Under the pieces are notes generated by a model, which was given only the letters and a program-made list of their open reading frames with translations, searched no databases and was not told the DNA's origin. Positions 38,930 through 46,135 of a stretch of DNA of 64,000 nucleotides are shown here, one piece after another. Source of the DNA: Sphingomonas sp. CL5.1 (GTDB lineage Bacteria; Pseudomonadota; Alphaproteobacteria; Sphingomonadales; Sphingomonadaceae). Positions within the stretch are counted from its first letter, which is position 1; every line of letters starts with the position of its first letter. The stretch covers positions 248,001 through 312,000 of the forward strand of contig NZ_CP050137.1 of NCBI RefSeq assembly GCF_013344685.1. Reading direction: 5' to 3'. The translations under genes and the position numbers were made by a program.

Positions 38930-39118
38930 TCAATCCTCCGCGTGCCGGCCGGCGTCGAAACGCGCCGCTATCCACCTTTCCGCCTCGCGCCAGTCGTCGA
39001 TCCGGGCATGGGCCTGCGCGGCGGCGGGGACGCCGGGGGCGAGCAGCGGCTCCGCCACCATGTGCAGCCGGTGGACGCGCGGGGCGTGTTCGGCGACCGA
39101 GGCGTGATGGTGCCCCAA
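38930..39118 (-). pseudogene. 3' remnant of a gene cut at the accessory-region junction
   Basis: About 62 codons with the same composition as the core genome end 33 bases before ridA, in operon-like spacing. The peptide (HHASVAEHAPRVHRLHMVAE, then PLLAPGVPAAAQAHARIDDW and EAERWIAARF) looks like the natural C-terminus of a larger protein. Upstream the frame reads into unrelated A/T-richer sequence and meets a stop near 39165. No proper start codon or ribosome binding site exists; the only initiator is TTG at 39118. I do not recognise the parent family. Confidence 0.5.
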
Positions 39119-39454: not shown

Positions 39455-39658
39455 ATGAGCGAAACTGGCGATCTACACATTGCCGAGACGGCGGCGGCGG
39501 CCGGCATCTCGAAACCGACCCTTCTTCGGTGGATTAAAGACGGCAAAGTTAAGGATGCGCAGCGGCGCGACCGGAATGGTTGGCGGATATTCTCACCCGC
39601 CGAGGTAACCGCAATTCGGACACTTGCCGCGTCCACGAAGCCGACGAAAAACTCATGA
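39455..39658 (+). CDS. Small MerR/AlpA-type helix-turn-helix protein
   Basis: A 67-residue protein consisting of almost only a winged MerR-like DNA-binding domain: LHIAETAAAAGISKPTLLRW (helix-turn-helix), then KDGKVKDAQRRDRNGWRIFS and PAEVTAI. No effector domain. ATG 39455 follows a good Shine-Dalgarno (GGGAGGG); an upstream TTG lies in the repeat region. Its stop overlaps the start of the methyltransferase gene (ATGA), so the two are co-translated. It most likely controls expression of the modification locus, as C-proteins do, but belongs to a different HTH family. Confidence 0.85.
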   Translation: MSETGDLHIAETAAAAGISKPTLLRWIKDGKVKDAQRRDRNGWRIFSPAEVTAIRTLAASTKPTKNS

Positions 39659-40890
39659 CCGCACCGTCCATGAGCGCCGCGCGTCGGCAGCGGCCCGCGT
39701 TCTTGGCGGTCGATTTTTTCTGCGGTGCGGGCGGGACCACGCGCGGTCTGATCGATGCTGGGGGCTACGTCATCGCCGGTGTCGATAAGGACAATCGCTG
39801 CCGGCAGACCTATGTCGAGAACAATCCCAATACGACCATTGATTTCTCGACCCCGCGGTTCATCAGGCGGGATATCTTCCCCGCAACCGATGCCTATCCG
39901 GATGGCGAGCAGGCAGAACTGTTCGACGATCTTGAGAAGCTGATCGAGAAATATAGGGCGGAAGCACCCGGTGCGCCTCTCATGTTCGCGATCTGCGCGC
40001 CATGCCAGCCCTTCACAAAGCTTTCCCGCAAGGAACTCAGCAACGCCCGGAAGGAAGGTCGCGAACGCGATAGCAATCTGCTGCGTGAAGCGGCAAAATT
40101 TGTTGCGCGGTTTCGCCCGGAGATGATCCTGTCGGAAAACGTCCAAGGCATCGGCGATCCGAAATATGGTGGCGTCTGGAACGATTTTCGTAGTCAGCTC
40201 AGGAAGCTTGGTTATGCGACCGGCTCGAATGTCGTCTGCACGTCCGATTTCGGCGTTCCGCAGTTTCGCCGTCGTTCGATCCTCATTGCTGCTCCACGGG
40301 AGCTGGCGCGGCCGGAGTTTCTGGAGCCGGGCCACGACGGTGATCTGGTGGTCCCTCTCGAGGACACGGCGGCTGCGGTCCGATCGGTCCGTTCGGCAAT
40401 CGGTCATCTGCCGTCGCTTCCCGCCGGGGCGCAGCACGCAACAATCCCGAACCACAAGACCCGGACTCTGAGCGACCTCAACTTGAAGCGTCTGGCTTCG
40501 GCTAAACCCGGCGAGTCAAATGTCTATCTCGACAACACCCCTCACGGCGACCTCTCGCTGGCGTGCCACCGGAAGGTGAACGCGAAGCTCAAGGTGCGTT
40601 GCTTTACCGATGTCTATACGCGAATGGACCCGGATCGACCGTCTCCCACGATTACGACGAAATGCCATAGCATCTCGAATGGACGCTTCGGCCATTTTGA
40701 CACGAGTCAGGTGCGCGGAATTTCGCTGAGGGAAGCCGCAATCCTCCAGTCTTTCCCGCAGGACTATGTCTTCTATCCAACCGACATGATCGAACCGGTC
40801 GCGCGCATGATCGGCAACGCAGTGCCGCCCAGGCTGGCCGAATATTTTTCGCGTTATCTCTCTGACGCCCTTGTGTCGGCCGATGGCTGA
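39655..40890 (+). CDS. DNA (cytosine-5) methyltransferase
   Basis: A 411-residue C5 methyltransferase. Motif I is DFFCGAGGTTRGL (from residue 20), motif IV holds the nucleophile C117 in APCQPF, motif VI is ENVQGI, motif VIII is RRRSILIA, and motifs IX/X appear as TITTKCHSISNGRFGHF and IGNAVPP. All catalytic motifs are intact, so it should methylate a specific sequence; the target cannot be predicted. It is co-translated with the HTH gene. No restriction endonuclease gene of a classic type is adjacent; instead a Vsr gene overlaps its 3' end by 37 bases on the other strand. Confidence 0.95.
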   Translation: MTAPSMSAARRQRPAFLAVDFFCGAGGTTRGLIDAGGYVIAGVDKDNRCRQTYVENNPNTTIDFSTPRFIRRDIFPATDAYPDGEQAELFDDLEKLIEKYRAEAPGAPLMFAICAPCQPFTKLSRKELSNARKEGRERDSNLLREAAKFVARFRPEMILSENVQGIGDPKYGGVWNDFRSQLRKLGYATGSNVVCTSDFGVPQFRRRSILIAAPRELARPEFLEPGHDGDLVVPLEDTAAAVRSVRSAIGHLPSLPAGAQHATIPNHKTRTLSDLNLKRLASAKPGESNVYLDNTPHGDLSLACHRKVNAKLKVRCFTDVYTRMDPDRPSPTITTKCHSISNGRFGHFDTSQVRGISLREAAILQSFPQDYVFYPTDMIEPVARMIGNAVPPRLAEYFSRYLSDALVSADG

Positions 40891-41279
40891 AGTCGGCGCA
40901 CTATCCGCTCCACTCCAAGGTCGAGCGCACATTCCCATACTGTTTCGACGTGCCAACCGAGCGCTTCCAGGCGTATTCGCGTGCTGTGATCGCGGTCGAT
41001 GTTGCGATCGAGCTTCGCCGCCCAAAACTCCTGGTTTGATTGAGGCCGAGCACCTCGCGGGCAGTCATGGCCATGCCAAAAGCATCCATGGACCAAGACG
41101 ACGGTGCGATGCCGCGGGAGGACCATATCGGGCTTTCCGGGAAGGTCGCGACGATGAAGGCGAAAGCGGAGCCCGACGGCATGCAACGCGCGTCGAACAT
41201 ATAATTCGGGCGCCGTATCCTTGCCGCCGACGCGTGACATTGCGCGCGAACGCTGTTCCGGTGTCATATGGTCCGCCAT
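40854..41279 (-). CDS. vsr: Very-short-patch-repair (Vsr) endonuclease
   Basis: A 141-residue PD-(D/E)XK-type nickase that initiates repair of T:G mismatches left by deamination of 5-methylcytosine. Family segments are MTPEQRSRAMSRVGGKDTAPE at the N-terminus (here split), LPGKPDMVLPRHRTVVLVHG with the catalytic aspartate, and the zinc-site motif CFWHGHDCPRGARP, followed by LGWHVETVWECAL. The start is ATG 41279 or 41267. It is convergent with the methyltransferase gene (37-base overlap) and divergent from the GHKL gene by about 20-34 bases. Reversed orientation relative to its methyltransferase partner is unusual. Confidence 0.95.
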   Translation of the reverse strand: MADHMTPEQRSRAMSRVGGKDTAPELYVRRALHAVGLRFRLHRRDLPGKPDMVLPRHRTVVLVHGCFWHGHDCPRGARPQSNQEFWAAKLDRNIDRDHSTRIRLEALGWHVETVWECALDLGVERIVRRLQPSADTRASER

Positions 41280-41313
41280 GCTGCGGTTATAGCAACGGGT
41301 GGCCCCACAAACC

Positions 41314-44268
41314 ATGACCGATACGGATCAAACCGGCCGGTCGCTGGAACGGGCTGCGGAGAACGTTTCCTTCCGAACGCGTGCGCGAACGATCGATCAT
41401 CTCGGGCGCGGTCAGATCGCCGACGCTCCGACGGCGGTCAGCGAGCTTTGGAAGAATGCGTGGGATGCCTACGCGACACAGGTATCGCTCAATATCTTCG
41501 ACGGTGACCCGGCCGTTGCCGCAGTCTTCGACGACGGTATCGGCATGTCGGCGCAGGATTTCGTCGAGAAGTGGCTCGTCATCGGTACCGAATCAAAGAT
41601 TGATGGCCCACCGCCGGCGCCACCGGCCGATTTCACCGGCTCCGCACGCGAGCGGCAGGGCGAAAAAGGAATCGGACGTCTGTCGGCCGCTTTTCTCGCG
41701 CCGGCGACTCTTGTTTTGTCACAACAGGCAGATGGTCCGATTTCGGCGGTTCTGGTCGATTGGCGCCTTTTCGAAAACCCGTTCCTGTCACTTGATCAGA
41801 TCACATTGCCTGTACGTACATTCGGCAAGCGCGGCGAAGTGGCCGTTGGGCTGCGGGCGATGGCAACGGCGATACTCGACAATCTCGGGGAGAGATCTGC
41901 CACAGGCGACTTGATCCTGTCACCCGATTGGCAGCGTTACACCGCCGCCGAACAGGCGGCGGGTGCACGATCGACCGCAGAGGCCATGATCGACTTCTGG
42001 TCGGAGATGCCGATTTCCGCCCGACACCTCGAAGAGTGGCCCGTCTTCGCGGATTTGGCCTCACATGGTACCGCACTGTATCTACTTGGTGCCCACCATG
42101 AACTGTCGGTCTGGCTTGGCTCCGCGCCGGACGACGATGAAGCGAAGGAGGTCAAGCAAAGGCTCAAGGATATTTTGACCGGCTTCACCGACACGCTGTC
42201 GGCTGCGCCGGTCGTGTTCGATTATGAGGTTCTCGCCTATCATGGAGATGTTCCGCGTCGTATCCTTGCTTCCTCGGATGTGTTCGATCTCTCCGATTTC
42301 CGAGAACTTGAACATAGCGTCGAGGGCGCCTTCGACGAGGCCGGAGTTTTCCGCGGCAAAATCCGGGCGTTCGGTGAGGATTTAGGCGAACGCATCATTC
42401 CGCCCCCGCGGTCGTTGCCCCCGGCAAGATCGGATCGGCCGGGTCCCTTTGCATTTGCGATCGGTACGTTCGAGCAGGTCGCGATGGCCTCAACGCACAA
42501 TGCCAAGCGGCATCAGGATCTAATGGAACTCGTCGACCGGTACGGTGGGGTTCGGGTGTATCGCGACGGCTTGCGCGTGATGCCATACGGCTCAGCCGAC
42601 GCCGACTTCTTTTCACTGGAAGAAACTCGCCAGAAGCACGCTGGACGCTACTTTTGGGCCCACCGACGGAGTTTCGGACGACTTGCCTTCACGCGCGCCG
42701 GAAATCCCGCGCTAAAGGACAAGGCTGGCCGCGAAGGCCTGGTCGAGAACCGAGCGAGCCGCGAGCTTCGTCTCCTCGTCCAGGCCCTGCTCATCAAACT
42801 GGCCAGAGATTATTTCGGAACAGACTCTCCGGAACGCGAAGAGCGCATCGCGGAGACCAAGAAGCGAAACATCAAGGGTCGCAAGGCGGCCGAGCAGGCG
42901 CGTAAACGTCGGCGGGGCGAATTCAGGACTTACCTCGCCGACGCGATCAAACGCATGCCGCAATTGGCTGAGCGAGCGAAGAGCATCTCTTCACGATTGG
43001 AAGATGTGAAACAGCCGGCTTCGAAGGACACGGTCGCGATGATGCGCGCCGAGGTCGAGTTGGCTCGCGCGGAATTAGCCGCGCTGACGCCTCTCGACGT
43101 CCCGAACACGTTGGGCGACGCTGAATCGCGCTACCGAACGTTCAGGGACGAACTGGATGAAGCCAGCGATCTTATCCTGCTGTCCGACCAAGCGCTCCGC
43201 GAGATGGAGGCCACGGTCGGTGCGTCTTCGCCTCGTGAGGTCGCTGCAGCCGCCAGGGATCGGCACGAGAAAGCACTGAACGAACTTCTCTCGGGGTTCC
43301 AAGGTGACATCCGTGAGGGTATCAAGGCGATCACATCCAATTGGACATCCAATCTTGAGGACGACCGGACGCGATACGAGCGAGCGACGACTCCCCTGTT
43401 GCGCAAGCTGTCGCAAGACACCGATCTGAACGATCTTCTCGGCCTGTTGGAAACGGTGCGGCGCGAGCTGGAAGACGAATTCAACGACCGGTACCGGCCG
43501 ATTGTCCGTAATATCCGGACCATAATCGAAGGCGTGGACGCGGAGATGGCGCTCGCCACGATTGACGAGGATCGGGAAGAACTCGATCGCCGGGTTCGTG
43601 ACCTGAACGCGGTCGCACAGCTCGGAATCACGGTCGAGATCATCGGACATGAGCTTGAAGCGCTCGACAGTGAGGTGAGCCGTAACTTGGAGAAGCTGCC
43701 GGACACGGCCAAGAAGACGCTGGCCTTCACCCGGGCGATGGACGCGCATCGGTCACTCACCGAAAAGCTACGCTTCCTCTCACCTCTCCAACTGGCCGGC
43801 GCCCGGTTGCGAGAGACGATCACCGGCAAGGCTATCGTTGATTATGTCCGCGATTTCTTCGGGCCGGTCTTCACGGACGGGGGCATCCGGCTTGAGAGTA
43901 CGCCAGCTTTCGACTCGATCCGCTTCACCGAACTCAAATCACGCATCTACCCGGTGTTCATCAACCTCGTGAACAACGCCGTTTATTGGGTCGGACGGTC
44001 GGAAGAGCGAGTGATCCGCTTCGATTTTGTCGATGGCAAGATCGTTGTCGGTGACACCGGCCCCGGTATCGACCGGGATGACGTCTGGCGTCTTTTTCAG
44101 CTGTTCTACACGCGCCGCTCTTCCGGTCGCGGCGTCGGACTGTATCTGTCCCGGGTGAACCTTGAGGCTGGCCGCCATGCGATCCGTTACGCGACCGAGG
44201 AAGATCCGCACATTCTGCCCGGCGCAAACTTCATAATTGAGATGAGGGGGCTGGAAGGTGGAGCTTGA
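41314..44268 (+). CDS. Double-GHKL protein: MORC/Hsp90-like ATPase plus C-terminal histidine-kinase module
   Basis: About 984 residues. The N-terminal GHKL ATPase has ELWKNAWDAY (N-box), DDGIGM (G1) and GEKGIGRLS (G2) within residues ~44-125, as in MutL/MORC/Hsp90-type proteins linked to modification systems. A long charged, helical, probably coiled-coil region follows (about residues 520-760). The last ~220 residues form a second, histidine-kinase-type module: H779 in IIGHELEALDSEV, N-box INLVNNAVYW (N887/N888), G1 VGDTGPGI (D914), F-box LFQLFYTRR, and G2 GRGVGLYLSR. No membrane segment is present. The next gene encodes a receiver domain and overlaps by 11 bases, so a phosphorelay is likely. 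GTG 41299 is an alternative start. Confidence 0.88.
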   Translation: MTDTDQTGRSLERAAENVSFRTRARTIDHLGRGQIADAPTAVSELWKNAWDAYATQVSLNIFDGDPAVAAVFDDGIGMSAQDFVEKWLVIGTESKIDGPPPAPPADFTGSARERQGEKGIGRLSAAFLAPATLVLSQQADGPISAVLVDWRLFENPFLSLDQITLPVRTFGKRGEVAVGLRAMATAILDNLGERSATGDLILSPDWQRYTAAEQAAGARSTAEAMIDFWSEMPISARHLEEWPVFADLASHGTALYLLGAHHELSVWLGSAPDDDEAKEVKQRLKDILTGFTDTLSAAPVVFDYEVLAYHGDVPRRILASSDVFDLSDFRELEHSVEGAFDEAGVFRGKIRAFGEDLGERIIPPPRSLPPARSDRPGPFAFAIGTFEQVAMASTHNAKRHQDLMELVDRYGGVRVYRDGLRVMPYGSADADFFSLEETRQKHAGRYFWAHRRSFGRLAFTRAGNPALKDKAGREGLVENRASRELRLLVQALLIKLARDYFGTDSPEREERIAETKKRNIKGRKAAEQARKRRRGEFRTYLADAIKRMPQLAERAKSISSRLEDVKQPASKDTVAMMRAEVELARAELAALTPLDVPNTLGDAESRYRTFRDELDEASDLILLSDQALREMEATVGASSPREVAAAARDRHEKALNELLSGFQGDIREGIKAITSNWTSNLEDDRTRYERATTPLLRKLSQDTDLNDLLGLLETVRRELEDEFNDRYRPIVRNIRTIIEGVDAEMALATIDEDREELDRRVRDLNAVAQLGITVEIIGHELEALDSEVSRNLEKLPDTAKKTLAFTRAMDAHRSLTEKLRFLSPLQLAGARLRETITGKAIVDYVRDFFGPVFTDGGIRLESTPAFDSIRFTELKSRIYPVFINLVNNAVYWVGRSEERVIRFDFVDGKIVVGDTGPGIDRDDVWRLFQLFYTRRSSGRGVGLYLSRVNLEAGRHAIRYATEEDPHILPGANFIIEMRGLEGGA

Positions 44269-46135
44269 AGCGTTCGAGGCGCGCTTTGCCGATGCGGTCG
44301 AAAGGAGCTTTCGCGACGACGCAATCCGCACCGCCGTCCTGATCGATGATCAGTTTCCGGACTATCTCCGGATGAGCGATGCCACTGACGAAGAGTTCAG
44401 CGAGATCGCGCGCGCAAAGCACATATATGGCTTCATGCACGCCAAGGGTCTCATCTGCGATATCCAGAACTGGCGCGTCCCGGACGACATGGACGTGCAT
44501 CTTCTCGATAAGGCGCGAAAGAGCGACCTAATTCTCCTTGATTACCAGCTCGGTGCAGCCGGATCGAAGACGGCGCTCAAGATTCTGCGCCATCTCGCGG
44601 TGTCGTCGCACTTCAATCTGGTGGTGCTGTATACCGCCGAGGCTAACGCCAACACGGCGCTGACTGTGGCGACCGCAATGCGCGGGCTTGCCCCGGTTCA
44701 GGACGACACGGCGCCGTCTCCGGAAATTCTCGAAGCGGCCGAGGATATCCTTGCAGAGGAGCGCTTTTATGAAATCGACGCACCGGGGCTGCGTGACTAT
44801 TTGACCGACGGCAAGATCGGCTGGAACAACGACCTGCGCCAGTCCATGCAGACCGCCGGAATCCATCTCTCCAACCTCAAGAGTTTGGCTGATTATGTTG
44901 CCCGGCAATGGATCGCGACCCTCGTTGACGACTATGAGCCTGATGCAAGTGAGCTTCCTCTCGGTCTGAACATCGGGCCCGACCAGCCTATGTGGGTGCA
45001 TTGCGGAAGCTGCTTCGTAGCGATCGTCCAGAAGCTGCCATCGAGTTCCGAGGAGGACGAGGGAGAATACGTTTGGGGGCGGCTGGGTTCGGCGCTGCGT
45101 GCGTGGAAGCCGAACATTTACCGCCTGATTCTGTCCGAAATCCAGAATGCGCTGGAGTTGGAGGCCGTCGCGCATCACGAGAACTGGCTGGACGATGACC
45201 TGTCACTCGGGCTCGGACTTTATCTCTTGGAGAGCGACGAGGCCGCAAGCGGAGTATTGTCGCCGTCGGATATCGAGGGCTCGGCACAAAGTCTGATCGA
45301 CCGCTTCGTAGACATCATCAGGCGGCGGCTTGCGACCCACGACGGTATATCCAGGACCGCCAACGATCTTCTCAGCGCCCGGCTTTCCACGACGCTTGGC
45401 ACGGCGCCGGCCGGCGAGAGCGCCCGACGTATCCGTGCCCGCGAGCTGGCACATATCGCGGCGGATCGAAGCATCGATTGGCAGCAGAAGGTCGTGCCGG
45501 CCGTAAATGCCTTCATGGTATCGGATGCCTTCAGGGGCGGTCACGTTACGACGGGAACCGTCCTGCGGGACGCGGATGACGCCTTTTGGCTGTGCGCGTC
45601 ACCGGCATGTGACCTCGTCCCGCGCGAGGACGGGCCGATCGTCGTCCAGCTAATCAAGCTGGAGAAGACCGGGGCACCGCCCGAAAGGTTCACGCCTGGG
45701 GAATTTGTCGTGGTCGGAAGCACGCGTGAGATCACGATCTTGCGTGCGCTCGACAAGAAGGGACGGCAGCCGGCATTGACGATGCTCGTCCTTCCCGGCG
45801 GCACGAGGGTAAGCCGCGACGGCGGGCGTGCAACCACCAGCGGTTGGTTCGCTACTGAGGCTGGCCTTCGCGCTGCCTCCGCGGCGCAGGGATTCCCAGC
45901 CGCAGCCGCCCCCGAGGCTGCAGCACCAGCGCAGGAGATCCCCGCTCCGGTCGGGGAAAATGCAAATGCGTTGGACATCGAAGCTCTGCCCGAACTTCCG
46001 GGCGAGGCGGCGCAAGCAGACGCGCCTTTTGTCCTCGAAATTGTTGCACAGTTAAGGAGTGCGTTCGCGACACGCTTCCTGATGGCGGCGGGGCAGCATC
46101 AATCCCGCATCGGCGTCGACTACGTCGATCCCTGA
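44258..46135 (+). CDS. Receiver-domain protein with unknown C-terminal effector region
   Basis: A 625-residue protein starting at GTG 44258. The N-terminus is a receiver-like domain: acidic pair D30/D31 in LIDDQFP, likely phospho-acceptor D95 in DLILLDYQL, and the switch threonine T126 in VVLYTAEAN. The gap between the acidic pair and D95 (about 64 residues) is longer than in usual receivers. Residues ~130-520 are helical and of no family I recognise, with a conserved-looking WLCASPACDLVPRE segment near residue 450. An Ala/Pro-rich linker (about residues 540-575) leads to a short C-terminal helix. It has no DNA-binding domain of known type, so it is probably an effector or scaffold controlled by the upstream kinase module. 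Confidence 0.75.
   Translation: MELEAFEARFADAVERSFRDDAIRTAVLIDDQFPDYLRMSDATDEEFSEIARAKHIYGFMHAKGLICDIQNWRVPDDMDVHLLDKARKSDLILLDYQLGAAGSKTALKILRHLAVSSHFNLVVLYTAEANANTALTVATAMRGLAPVQDDTAPSPEILEAAEDILAEERFYEIDAPGLRDYLTDGKIGWNNDLRQSMQTAGIHLSNLKSLADYVARQWIATLVDDYEPDASELPLGLNIGPDQPMWVHCGSCFVAIVQKLPSSSEEDEGEYVWGRLGSALRAWKPNIYRLILSEIQNALELEAVAHHENWLDDDLSLGLGLYLLESDEAASGVLSPSDIEGSAQSLIDRFVDIIRRRLATHDGISRTANDLLSARLSTTLGTAPAGESARRIRARELAHIAADRSIDWQQKVVPAVNAFMVSDAFRGGHVTTGTVLRDADDAFWLCASPACDLVPREDGPIVVQLIKLEKTGAPPERFTPGEFVVVGSTREITILRALDKKGRQPALTMLVLPGGTRVSRDGGRATTSGWFATEAGLRAASAAQGFPAAAAPEAAAPAQEIPAPVGENANALDIEALPELPGEAAQADAPFVLEIVAQLRSAFATRFLMAAGQHQSRIGVDYVDP

What the first reader, a model, noticed from the sequence alone, without database searches (positions are those of the whole stretch)
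39455..46135. Candidate defence locus: HTH - cytosine methyltransferase - Vsr - double-GHKL sensor - receiver protein
A complete C5 methyltransferase and Vsr sit beside a soluble protein with two GHKL ATPase modules and a receiver-domain protein, with start/stop overlaps linking HTH to methyltransferase and sensor to receiver. MORC/MutL-like GHKL ATPases near modification genes, and histidine-kinase-type signalling in predicted immune systems, have both been proposed by comparative genomics (recalled from literature, not checked). The combination with Vsr and without a classic restriction enzyme suggests that self/non-self methylation status is sensed by the ATPase and passed on as a phosphorelay to an effector. 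That mechanism is inference.
Basis: partly seen in the sequence, partly recalled or inferred. Interest (0 to 1): 0.85.

Follow-up and report, generated by a model that had tools for sequence, protein, structure and literature searches.

The report
Methylase-linked kinase and receiver gene pair
A small mobile gene set joins a DNA-marking enzyme to a two-engine signalling kinase and its receiver partner; the pair was described from genomes in 2021, I found no test of what it does, and related sets suggest a DNA-defence circuit with swappable parts.

Summary
In detail: all five genes lie where stated and the sensor carries two GHKL modules. The pair is not new. [quoted passage not shown] I found no functional test in print.

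New evidence. In 92 kinase loci the receiver adjoins the kinase in 92, a C5 methylase lies within 9 kb of the pair in 88, Vsr in 43; no nuclease family recurs in more than a few. Phosphorelay residues are invariant (His784 89/89, Asp95 91/91). Kinase and receiver diverge together (r=0.94); the methylase follows less (r=0.48) and falls into seven groups: it has been exchanged while the pair stayed. The receiver's C-terminal domain recurs behind an ordinary receiver domain in a second class, on plasmids among others. More distant kinases in viral contigs carry adenine methylases or separate HNH or metallo-beta-lactamase genes.

Best reading: a mobile, restriction-like epigenetic immune module. 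The kinase detects missing modification and switches the receiver protein's effector by phosphotransfer. Sensing, output chemistry and any effect on phage are inferred; structure prediction was never accepted (25 busy replies).

The parts
39455..39658 (+). Small HTH protein (67 aa, MerR/HTH_17-like), companion of this methylase group; probably a regulator (inference)
   Evidence: Pfam MerR_1 23.2 bits over cut-off 21.6; homologues in 6 of 92 relatives' loci at E<=1e-3: L016, L017, L018, L025, L053, L055
39655..40890 (+). C5 cytosine DNA methyltransferase (411 aa from ATG 39655; ORF open from TTG 39580)
   Evidence: PF00145 E 6e-38; PADLOC MTase_II 212 bits; cluster 1 of 7 at 40% identity
40854..41315 (-). 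Vsr mismatch endonuclease, convergent on the methylase
   Evidence: PF03852 E 2e-31, TIGR00632 143.8 bits over cut-off 97.85
41314..44268 (+). Double-GHKL kinase-like sensor (984 aa): N-terminal HATPase_c_3, invariant KAGREG motif, coiled middle, HEF_HK with His784 (His779 from ATG), C-terminal HATPase_c
   Evidence: profile matches MutL/PMS2 at its N-terminus and histidine kinases at its C-terminus in the PDB
44258..46135 (+). Response_reg_2 receiver protein (625 aa) with phospho-acceptor Asp95 and a conserved unnamed C-terminal domain
   Evidence: PF19192 75.8 bits over cut-off 27; Asp95 in 91 of 91
45506..46126 (+). C-terminal output domain of the receiver protein (about residues 417-623), here called CDL after its motif N...TTG...C..SPxCDLVP...R.G
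   Evidence: C451 and R617 in 91 of 91, C446 and D452 in 87 of 91; core motif matches class-2 receivers; no Pfam match to residues 408-625
39113..39114 (.). Left border of the foreign region: homology to Sphingomonas relatives ends and GC falls from about 70% to 60%

Best explanation
A mobile, restriction-like epigenetic immune module whose minimal set is C5 methylase, double-GHKL kinase and receiver-effector. The methylase marks self DNA. The kinase's N-terminal MutL/MORC-type ATPase clamp engages DNA (or a DNA-protein complex) that lacks the mark and, on ATP-driven closure, lets the C-terminal kinase half phosphorylate His784; the phosphoryl group moves to Asp95 of the receiver protein, which frees or assembles its C-terminal CDL output domain to damage the invading DNA or stop the cell. 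Vsr, when present, repairs T:G mismatches left by deamination of 5-methylcytosine. Shown here by sequence: the domains, the intact catalytic and phosphorelay residues, the conserved gene set, its mobility, exchange of the methylase, and the recurrence of the output domain. Inferred: DNA sensing, direction of signal, the nature of the output, and any effect on phage or plasmids.
For: Receiver next to kinase in 92 of 92 loci, C5 methylase within 9 kb of the pair in 88 of 92. Both ATPase sites and the S5-like lysine are invariant (E49, N53, D56, K475, N889, N893 in 89 of 89), His784 89 of 89, Asp95 91 of 91. Kinase and receiver diverge together, r=0.94. The only recurrent neighbour family in more than 5 of 92 loci looks like tyrosine integrases (18 loci; identified by eye); members sit in viral contigs (12 loci) and on plasmids; presence is sparse: 5 of 385 class genomes, 3 of 396 order genomes. 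In the window's kinase the N-terminal module's best NCBIfam match is the BbrUII/HgiDII restriction-enzyme family (62.5 bits, far below its cut-off of 550). A second class with another receiver type keeps the methylase and the CDL motif. More distant kinases have adjoining HNH or metallo-beta-lactamase genes.
Against: No nuclease, DNA-binding or toxin domain was recognised in the receiver protein, so no effector is demonstrated. Four of 92 loci lack a detected C5 methylase; L088 and L090 have about 10 kb on each side. The Enterobacter class-2 plasmid locus has none in 12 kb. Weak methylase-kinase co-divergence (r=0.48) argues against a sensor built for one recognition sequence. PADLOC 2023 has no model for the pair beyond methylase and weak REase_II matches to the GHKL part. 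No phage or plasmid experiment was found.
Confidence: 0.55

Rival explanations
1. A type II restriction-modification system in disguise: kinase plus receiver protein are simply the two subunits of the restriction enzyme, with the CDL domain or the coiled middle of the kinase as an unrecognised nuclease; the phosphorelay is a safety catch rather than a signal.
For: The set is complete with a methylase and no other nuclease family shared by many loci; the N-terminal GHKL module matches restriction enzymes of PADLOC and NCBIfam best; neighbours in viral contigs include methylases followed directly by GHKL proteins without the full kinase match.
Against: No nuclease family found in either protein by Pfam, NCBIfam or PADLOC and none by PDB sequence profiles. 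Full histidine-kinase residues would be superfluous for a plain enzyme.
Confidence: 0.2
2. A regulatory two-component system that tunes expression of the methylase or of linked R-M genes, as PMC8011034 proposed.
For: Domain order is that of a soluble kinase and response regulator; the paper's authors suggest control of R-M systems (Discussion read).
Against: No DNA-binding output domain found in the receiver protein; in most loci there is no R-M enzyme besides the methylase to regulate; mobile, sparse distribution fits defence better.
Confidence: 0.15
3. A guard or addiction module: the pair monitors the methylase (or its methylation pattern) and kills or stalls the cell when a phage or plasmid loss removes it, with no recognition of foreign DNA.
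For: The pair stays while methylases of several groups are exchanged, which fits monitoring of a general state better than of one sequence; it lies on plasmids and in viral contigs.
Against: No toxin domain recognised; four loci without a detected methylase.
Confidence: 0.2

Closest known systems
HEF_HK / Response_reg_2 TCS-like elements (Bellieny-Rabelo, Pretorius and Moleleki 2021, PMC8011034)
   Same: Same two Pfam families, same group-1 architecture HATPase_c_3 + HEF_HK + HATPase_c, adjacent receiver protein, C5 methylase upstream, Vsr nearby; Sphingomonas is in the paper's own list of genera with Vsr.
   Different: In the parts I read (parts 1-4 of 7, incl. Results, and the Discussion) the paper treats the receiver protein as lacking other known domains and suggests control of R-M. 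Here I add the conserved C-terminal output domain, methylase exchange, a second class with canonical REC, and more distant relatives with other methylases and nuclease-type neighbours.
MORC / paraMORC ATPases of R-M operons (Iyer, Abhiman and Aravind 2008, PMC2292703; passages seen)
   Same: N-terminal GHKL module with intact motifs, neighbourhood with C5 methylase and Vsr.
   Different: The paper's families end in nuclease, TIR or other extensions; here the extension is a histidine-kinase half with its own receiver partner.
VcSduA, GHKL-type Shedu of Vibrio cholerae (PMC12137116; passages seen)
   Same: Soluble protein with N-terminal GHKL ATPase, shown there to restrict phages.
   Different: One protein ending in a DUF4263 nuclease, no methylase, kinase or receiver; no DUF4263 match in the window's kinase.
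BbrUII/HgiDII-family type II restriction enzymes (NCBIfam NF050001)
   Same: Similar N-terminal GHKL module over residues 30-151 (62.5 bits).
   Different: Far below the family cut-off of 550 bits; no match to the rest of that model.
Detocs (recalled: a defence system with a phosphorelay; not read)
   Same: Kinase and receiver used in phage defence (recalled).
   Different: No methylase and no double-GHKL sensor (recalled); not compared by sequence here.

Membership tests
HEF_HK / Response_reg_2 TCS-like elements, group 1 (PMC8011034) | Kinase-like protein with HATPase_c_3 + HEF_HK + HATPase_c | tested here: met
   51.6, 30.6 and 50.3 bits against cut-offs 25, 24.1 and 26.4
HEF_HK / Response_reg_2 TCS-like elements, group 1 (PMC8011034) | Adjacent Response_reg_2 protein with conserved acid pair and Asp | tested here: met
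   75.8 bits against 27; D30 and D95 in 91 of 91, D31 in 87 of 91
HEF_HK / Response_reg_2 TCS-like elements, group 1 (PMC8011034) | C5 methylase in the neighbourhood | tested here: met
   PF00145 E 6e-38 at 39655-40890
HEF_HK / Response_reg_2 TCS-like elements, group 1 (PMC8011034) | Phosphotransfer between the two proteins | not testable with these tools
   Only residue conservation and co-divergence could be measured
Type II restriction-modification system | DNA methyltransferase | tested here: met
Type II restriction-modification system | Cognate restriction endonuclease | tested here: inconclusive
   No nuclease family in kinase or receiver protein; only the GHKL part resembles REase_II models (33.1 and 31.8 bits). 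An unrecognised nuclease is not excluded
MORC/paraMORC GHKL + S5 ATPases | N-terminal GHKL with ATP-binding motifs followed by S5 with conserved lysine | tested here: inconclusive
   GHKL motifs and K475 of KAGREG invariant in 89 of 89, PDB profile matches to MutL and PMS2 for the GHKL part; the S5 fold itself could not be modelled (structure server busy)
Shedu with GHKL domain (VcSduA) | C-terminal DUF4263 PD-(D/E)XK nuclease | tested here: not met
   No DUF4263 match at E<=1 in the kinase
BbrUII/HgiDII restriction enzymes (NF050001) | Full-length model match over the curated cut-off | tested here: not met
   62.5 bits against 550, residues 30-151 only
MADS (methylation-associated defence system) | mad1 with the other mad genes | tested here: not met
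   Of five proteins only the HTH matches mad1, 25.9 bits; no other mad model among the rows shown (for the methylase 25 of 56 rows shown)
Detocs | Its kinase, receiver and effector families | not tested
   No Detocs sequence was compared; the PADLOC scan showed no such match for kinase or receiver, but I did not check that the 2023 library holds Detocs models

The most novel reading that the evidence does not exclude
A superfamily of plug-and-play epigenetic immunity by phosphorelay: a DNA methylase of any chemistry (C5-cytosine, N6-adenine) marks self; a two-engine GHKL kinase (MutL-like clamp plus histidine-kinase half) reads the missing mark; a receiver protein carries or controls an exchangeable effector (fused CDL domain, or adjoining HNH nuclease or metallo-beta-lactamase-fold hydrolase). 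The window is the class with Response_reg_2 and CDL. It would be restriction-modification run through a two-component signal instead of direct site recognition by the nuclease.
Probability: 0.35. Interest if true: 0.85.

Novelty: new member of a known kind. Interest (0 to 1): 0.6.

Why it matters
[quoted passage not shown] The shared C-terminal domain and invariant residues make the question directly testable with a few point mutants.
Full report
What is there. The five genes of the finding are real and intact. The window lies at G000:C1:248001-312000 of a 4.57-Mb genome. The nearest kinase relative in its genus, G730, sits on a contig of 502,853 bases, the length of a contig named Sphingomonas sp. 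HITSZ_GF, so I infer that the window is from Sphingomonas. The sensor protein combines HATPase_c_3, HEF_HK and HATPase_c, and the receiver protein is Response_reg_2 followed by about 470 residues without a Pfam name. A profile of 89 kinases matches MutL and PMS2 structures at its N-terminus and histidine-kinase structures at its C-terminus.

Already known. [quoted passage not shown] outline, parts 1-4 of 7 of the text and the Discussion read). That paper reports 91.6% linkage of the two across 644 regions, frequent upstream C5 methylases, and Vsr genes in 20 genera, Sphingomonas among them; it speculates about control of R-M systems. A search for the family names found that paper and one other paper (listing only). 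Further searches for functional or anti-phage work showed none among the papers listed; most were seen only as listings. The DefensePredictor paper (PMC13092281, passages) has a figure legend whose abbreviation list for predicted systems includes a histidine kinase-like ATPase and a receiver domain; whether that is this system I could not tell.

Conservation of the set. I searched genome contigs and viral contigs with an alignment of six kinases (in five of the six a C5 methylase was nearby, so the seed is not blind to methylases). 354 genome stretches encoded a relative, of which the best 80 were kept, plus 12 viral contigs. In these 92 loci the receiver adjoins the kinase in 92; a C5-methylase homologue lies within 9 kb of the pair in 88 and a Vsr homologue in 43 (85 and 42 of 89 after dropping the near-identical L100, L105, L107). 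Measured more strictly, the methylase ends within 300 bp upstream of the kinase on the same strand in 66 and adjoins the receiver downstream in another 13. Some methylase ORFs are split (L021) or partial (L072). Of the four without a methylase, L081 starts inside the kinase at a contig end, L043 has 8 kb upstream but ends just after the receiver, and L088 and L090 have about 10 kb on each side.

Catalytic residues. In 89 kinases His784, both N-boxes (N53; N889, N893) and K475 are invariant; in 91 receiver proteins Asp30, Asp90, Asp95, Cys451 and Arg617 are invariant and Thr126, Cys446 and Asp452 are in 87 (the window's own protein is counted, L105 and L107 are not, and L033 and L090 are left out of the kinase set for overlong ORFs). 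This is what a working phosphorelay needs, but it is not proof of one.

The methylase is exchangeable. Pairwise distances of kinase and receiver correlate at r=0.94 (84 loci with all three; 0.93 in 89), but kinase and methylase at 0.48 and receiver and methylase at 0.45; all exceed 999 permutations, so the methylase is not independent either. 87 methylases of 300-480 residues plus the window's fall into seven clusters at 40% identity: 62, 9, 8, 4, 3, 1 and 1 (near-identical loci not removed). The window's is in the cluster of nine, six of whose other members carry the same small HTH gene. The simplest reading is that an HTH-methylase unit displaced an older methylase beside a kept kinase/receiver pair. 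This argues against a sensor tied to one recognition sequence, or requires that different methylases share one target, which I could not test.

The output domain recurs. A profile of the receiver protein's C-terminal part found, in 289 class genomes, seven matches, two of them in proteins of a different kind (G267, G279). There the domain follows an ordinary receiver domain (PF00072 matches below cut-off: 17.3 and 22.7 bits), next to a shorter double-GHKL kinase of 723 residues and a C5 methylase, in one case with Vsr. Kinases of the two classes are homologous along their length (hhalign probability 100, E 7e-46, though His784 fell outside a reliable aligned part in the output shown). The receiver proteins share only the CDL core motif, 38 columns, probability 94, E 1e-7. 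The class-2 His505 is invariant in 5 of 5. On plasmids class 2 occurs in Enterobacter mori, Campylobacter, Hymenobacter and a Fusobacterium record; in six class-2 loci read, five have a C5 methylase and the Enterobacter one has none in 12 kb. Full-length class-2 receivers were listed for 3 of 398 phylum genomes; the other listed matches covered only the receiver part.

A wider circle. A scan of viral contigs with the class-2 kinase gave 59 loci. 37 hold a full-length kinase at 100 bits or more; two of these end at the contig edge. In 34 of the other 35 the next gene has an acid-pair pattern typical of receiver domains in its first 45 residues, against 18 of 227 other ORFs; the pattern was written after I had looked at the sequences and several loci are near-identical, so the contrast is inflated. 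Of these 35, 19 have a C5 methylase in the locus and 6 a CDL match in the next gene, some weak (19 bits). Pfam confirms both GHKL domains in the four kinases tested (L190, L193, L197, L208), N6-adenine methylases beside L193, L197 and L208, an HNH gene beside L197 and L205, and a metallo-beta-lactamase-fold gene beside L193; the methylase matches of L205 and L212 are below cut-off. Many receiver C-termini in this circle have no Pfam match (L190, L208, L215). Some loci have a methylase followed by a GHKL protein without the full kinase match (L224, L225, L242), which recalls GHKL-type restriction enzymes.

Setting in the genome. GC falls from about 70% to 60% at 39.1 kb and rises again about 10-12 kb past the window, so the set lies at the left edge of a roughly 36-kb foreign region whose other genes look, by my reading of their sequences, like malate synthase and aromatic-acid catabolism. 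Homology of the gene upstream of RidA to 27 same-genus loci stops at about 39113, so that gene seems cut by the junction.

Mechanism. I commit to a restriction-like immune module with a phosphorelay (0.55). Established by sequence: parts, intact residues, obligate kinase/receiver pairing, near-constant methylase, mobility. Inferred: sensing of missing modification by the N-terminal clamp, direction of signalling, effector function of CDL. The guard/addiction model (0.2) fits methylase exchange about as well; the plain two-subunit restriction enzyme (0.2) and the transcriptional regulator (0.15) remain open.

Verdict. As a locus it is a new member of a kind described in 2021. The extension to a second class, the shared output domain and the exchange of methylases go beyond what I read in that paper; I did not find them in the searches named above, which do not cover preprints or most subscription journals.

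Noticed in passing
window 39113 to 64000 and on to about G000:C1:323000 (L138): Roughly 36-kb region of 58-60% GC in a 68-70% GC chromosome, carrying genes that look like malate synthase, HAD hydrolase and aromatic-acid catabolism (my reading, no family search); the defence-like set sits at its left edge.
   Followed up: partly
window 38930-39118 -: 62-residue remnant homologous to a longer gene upstream of RidA in same-genus genomes; seems truncated by the island junction.
   Followed up: partly
[not shown]
   Followed up: no
L008 5840-14099: In G348 the kinase is in two ORFs and the receiver lies several kilobases away, with what looks like a recombinase gene between them: probably a decaying copy.
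   Followed up: no
L197, L205: Double-GHKL kinase, small receiver gene and separate HNH gene in viral contigs, with an N6 methylase in L197 (weak in L205).
   Followed up: partly
L193, L199, L200: Double-GHKL kinase, small receiver gene and metallo-beta-lactamase-fold gene (Pfam in L193; L199 and L200 by eye), with a methylase-like gene upstream.
   Followed up: partly
L152 (Campylobacter armoricus plasmid pCA639-1): Class-2 kinase and receiver with convergent C5 methylase on a conjugative plasmid; similar kinase matches in 41 Campylobacter plasmid records.
   Followed up: partly
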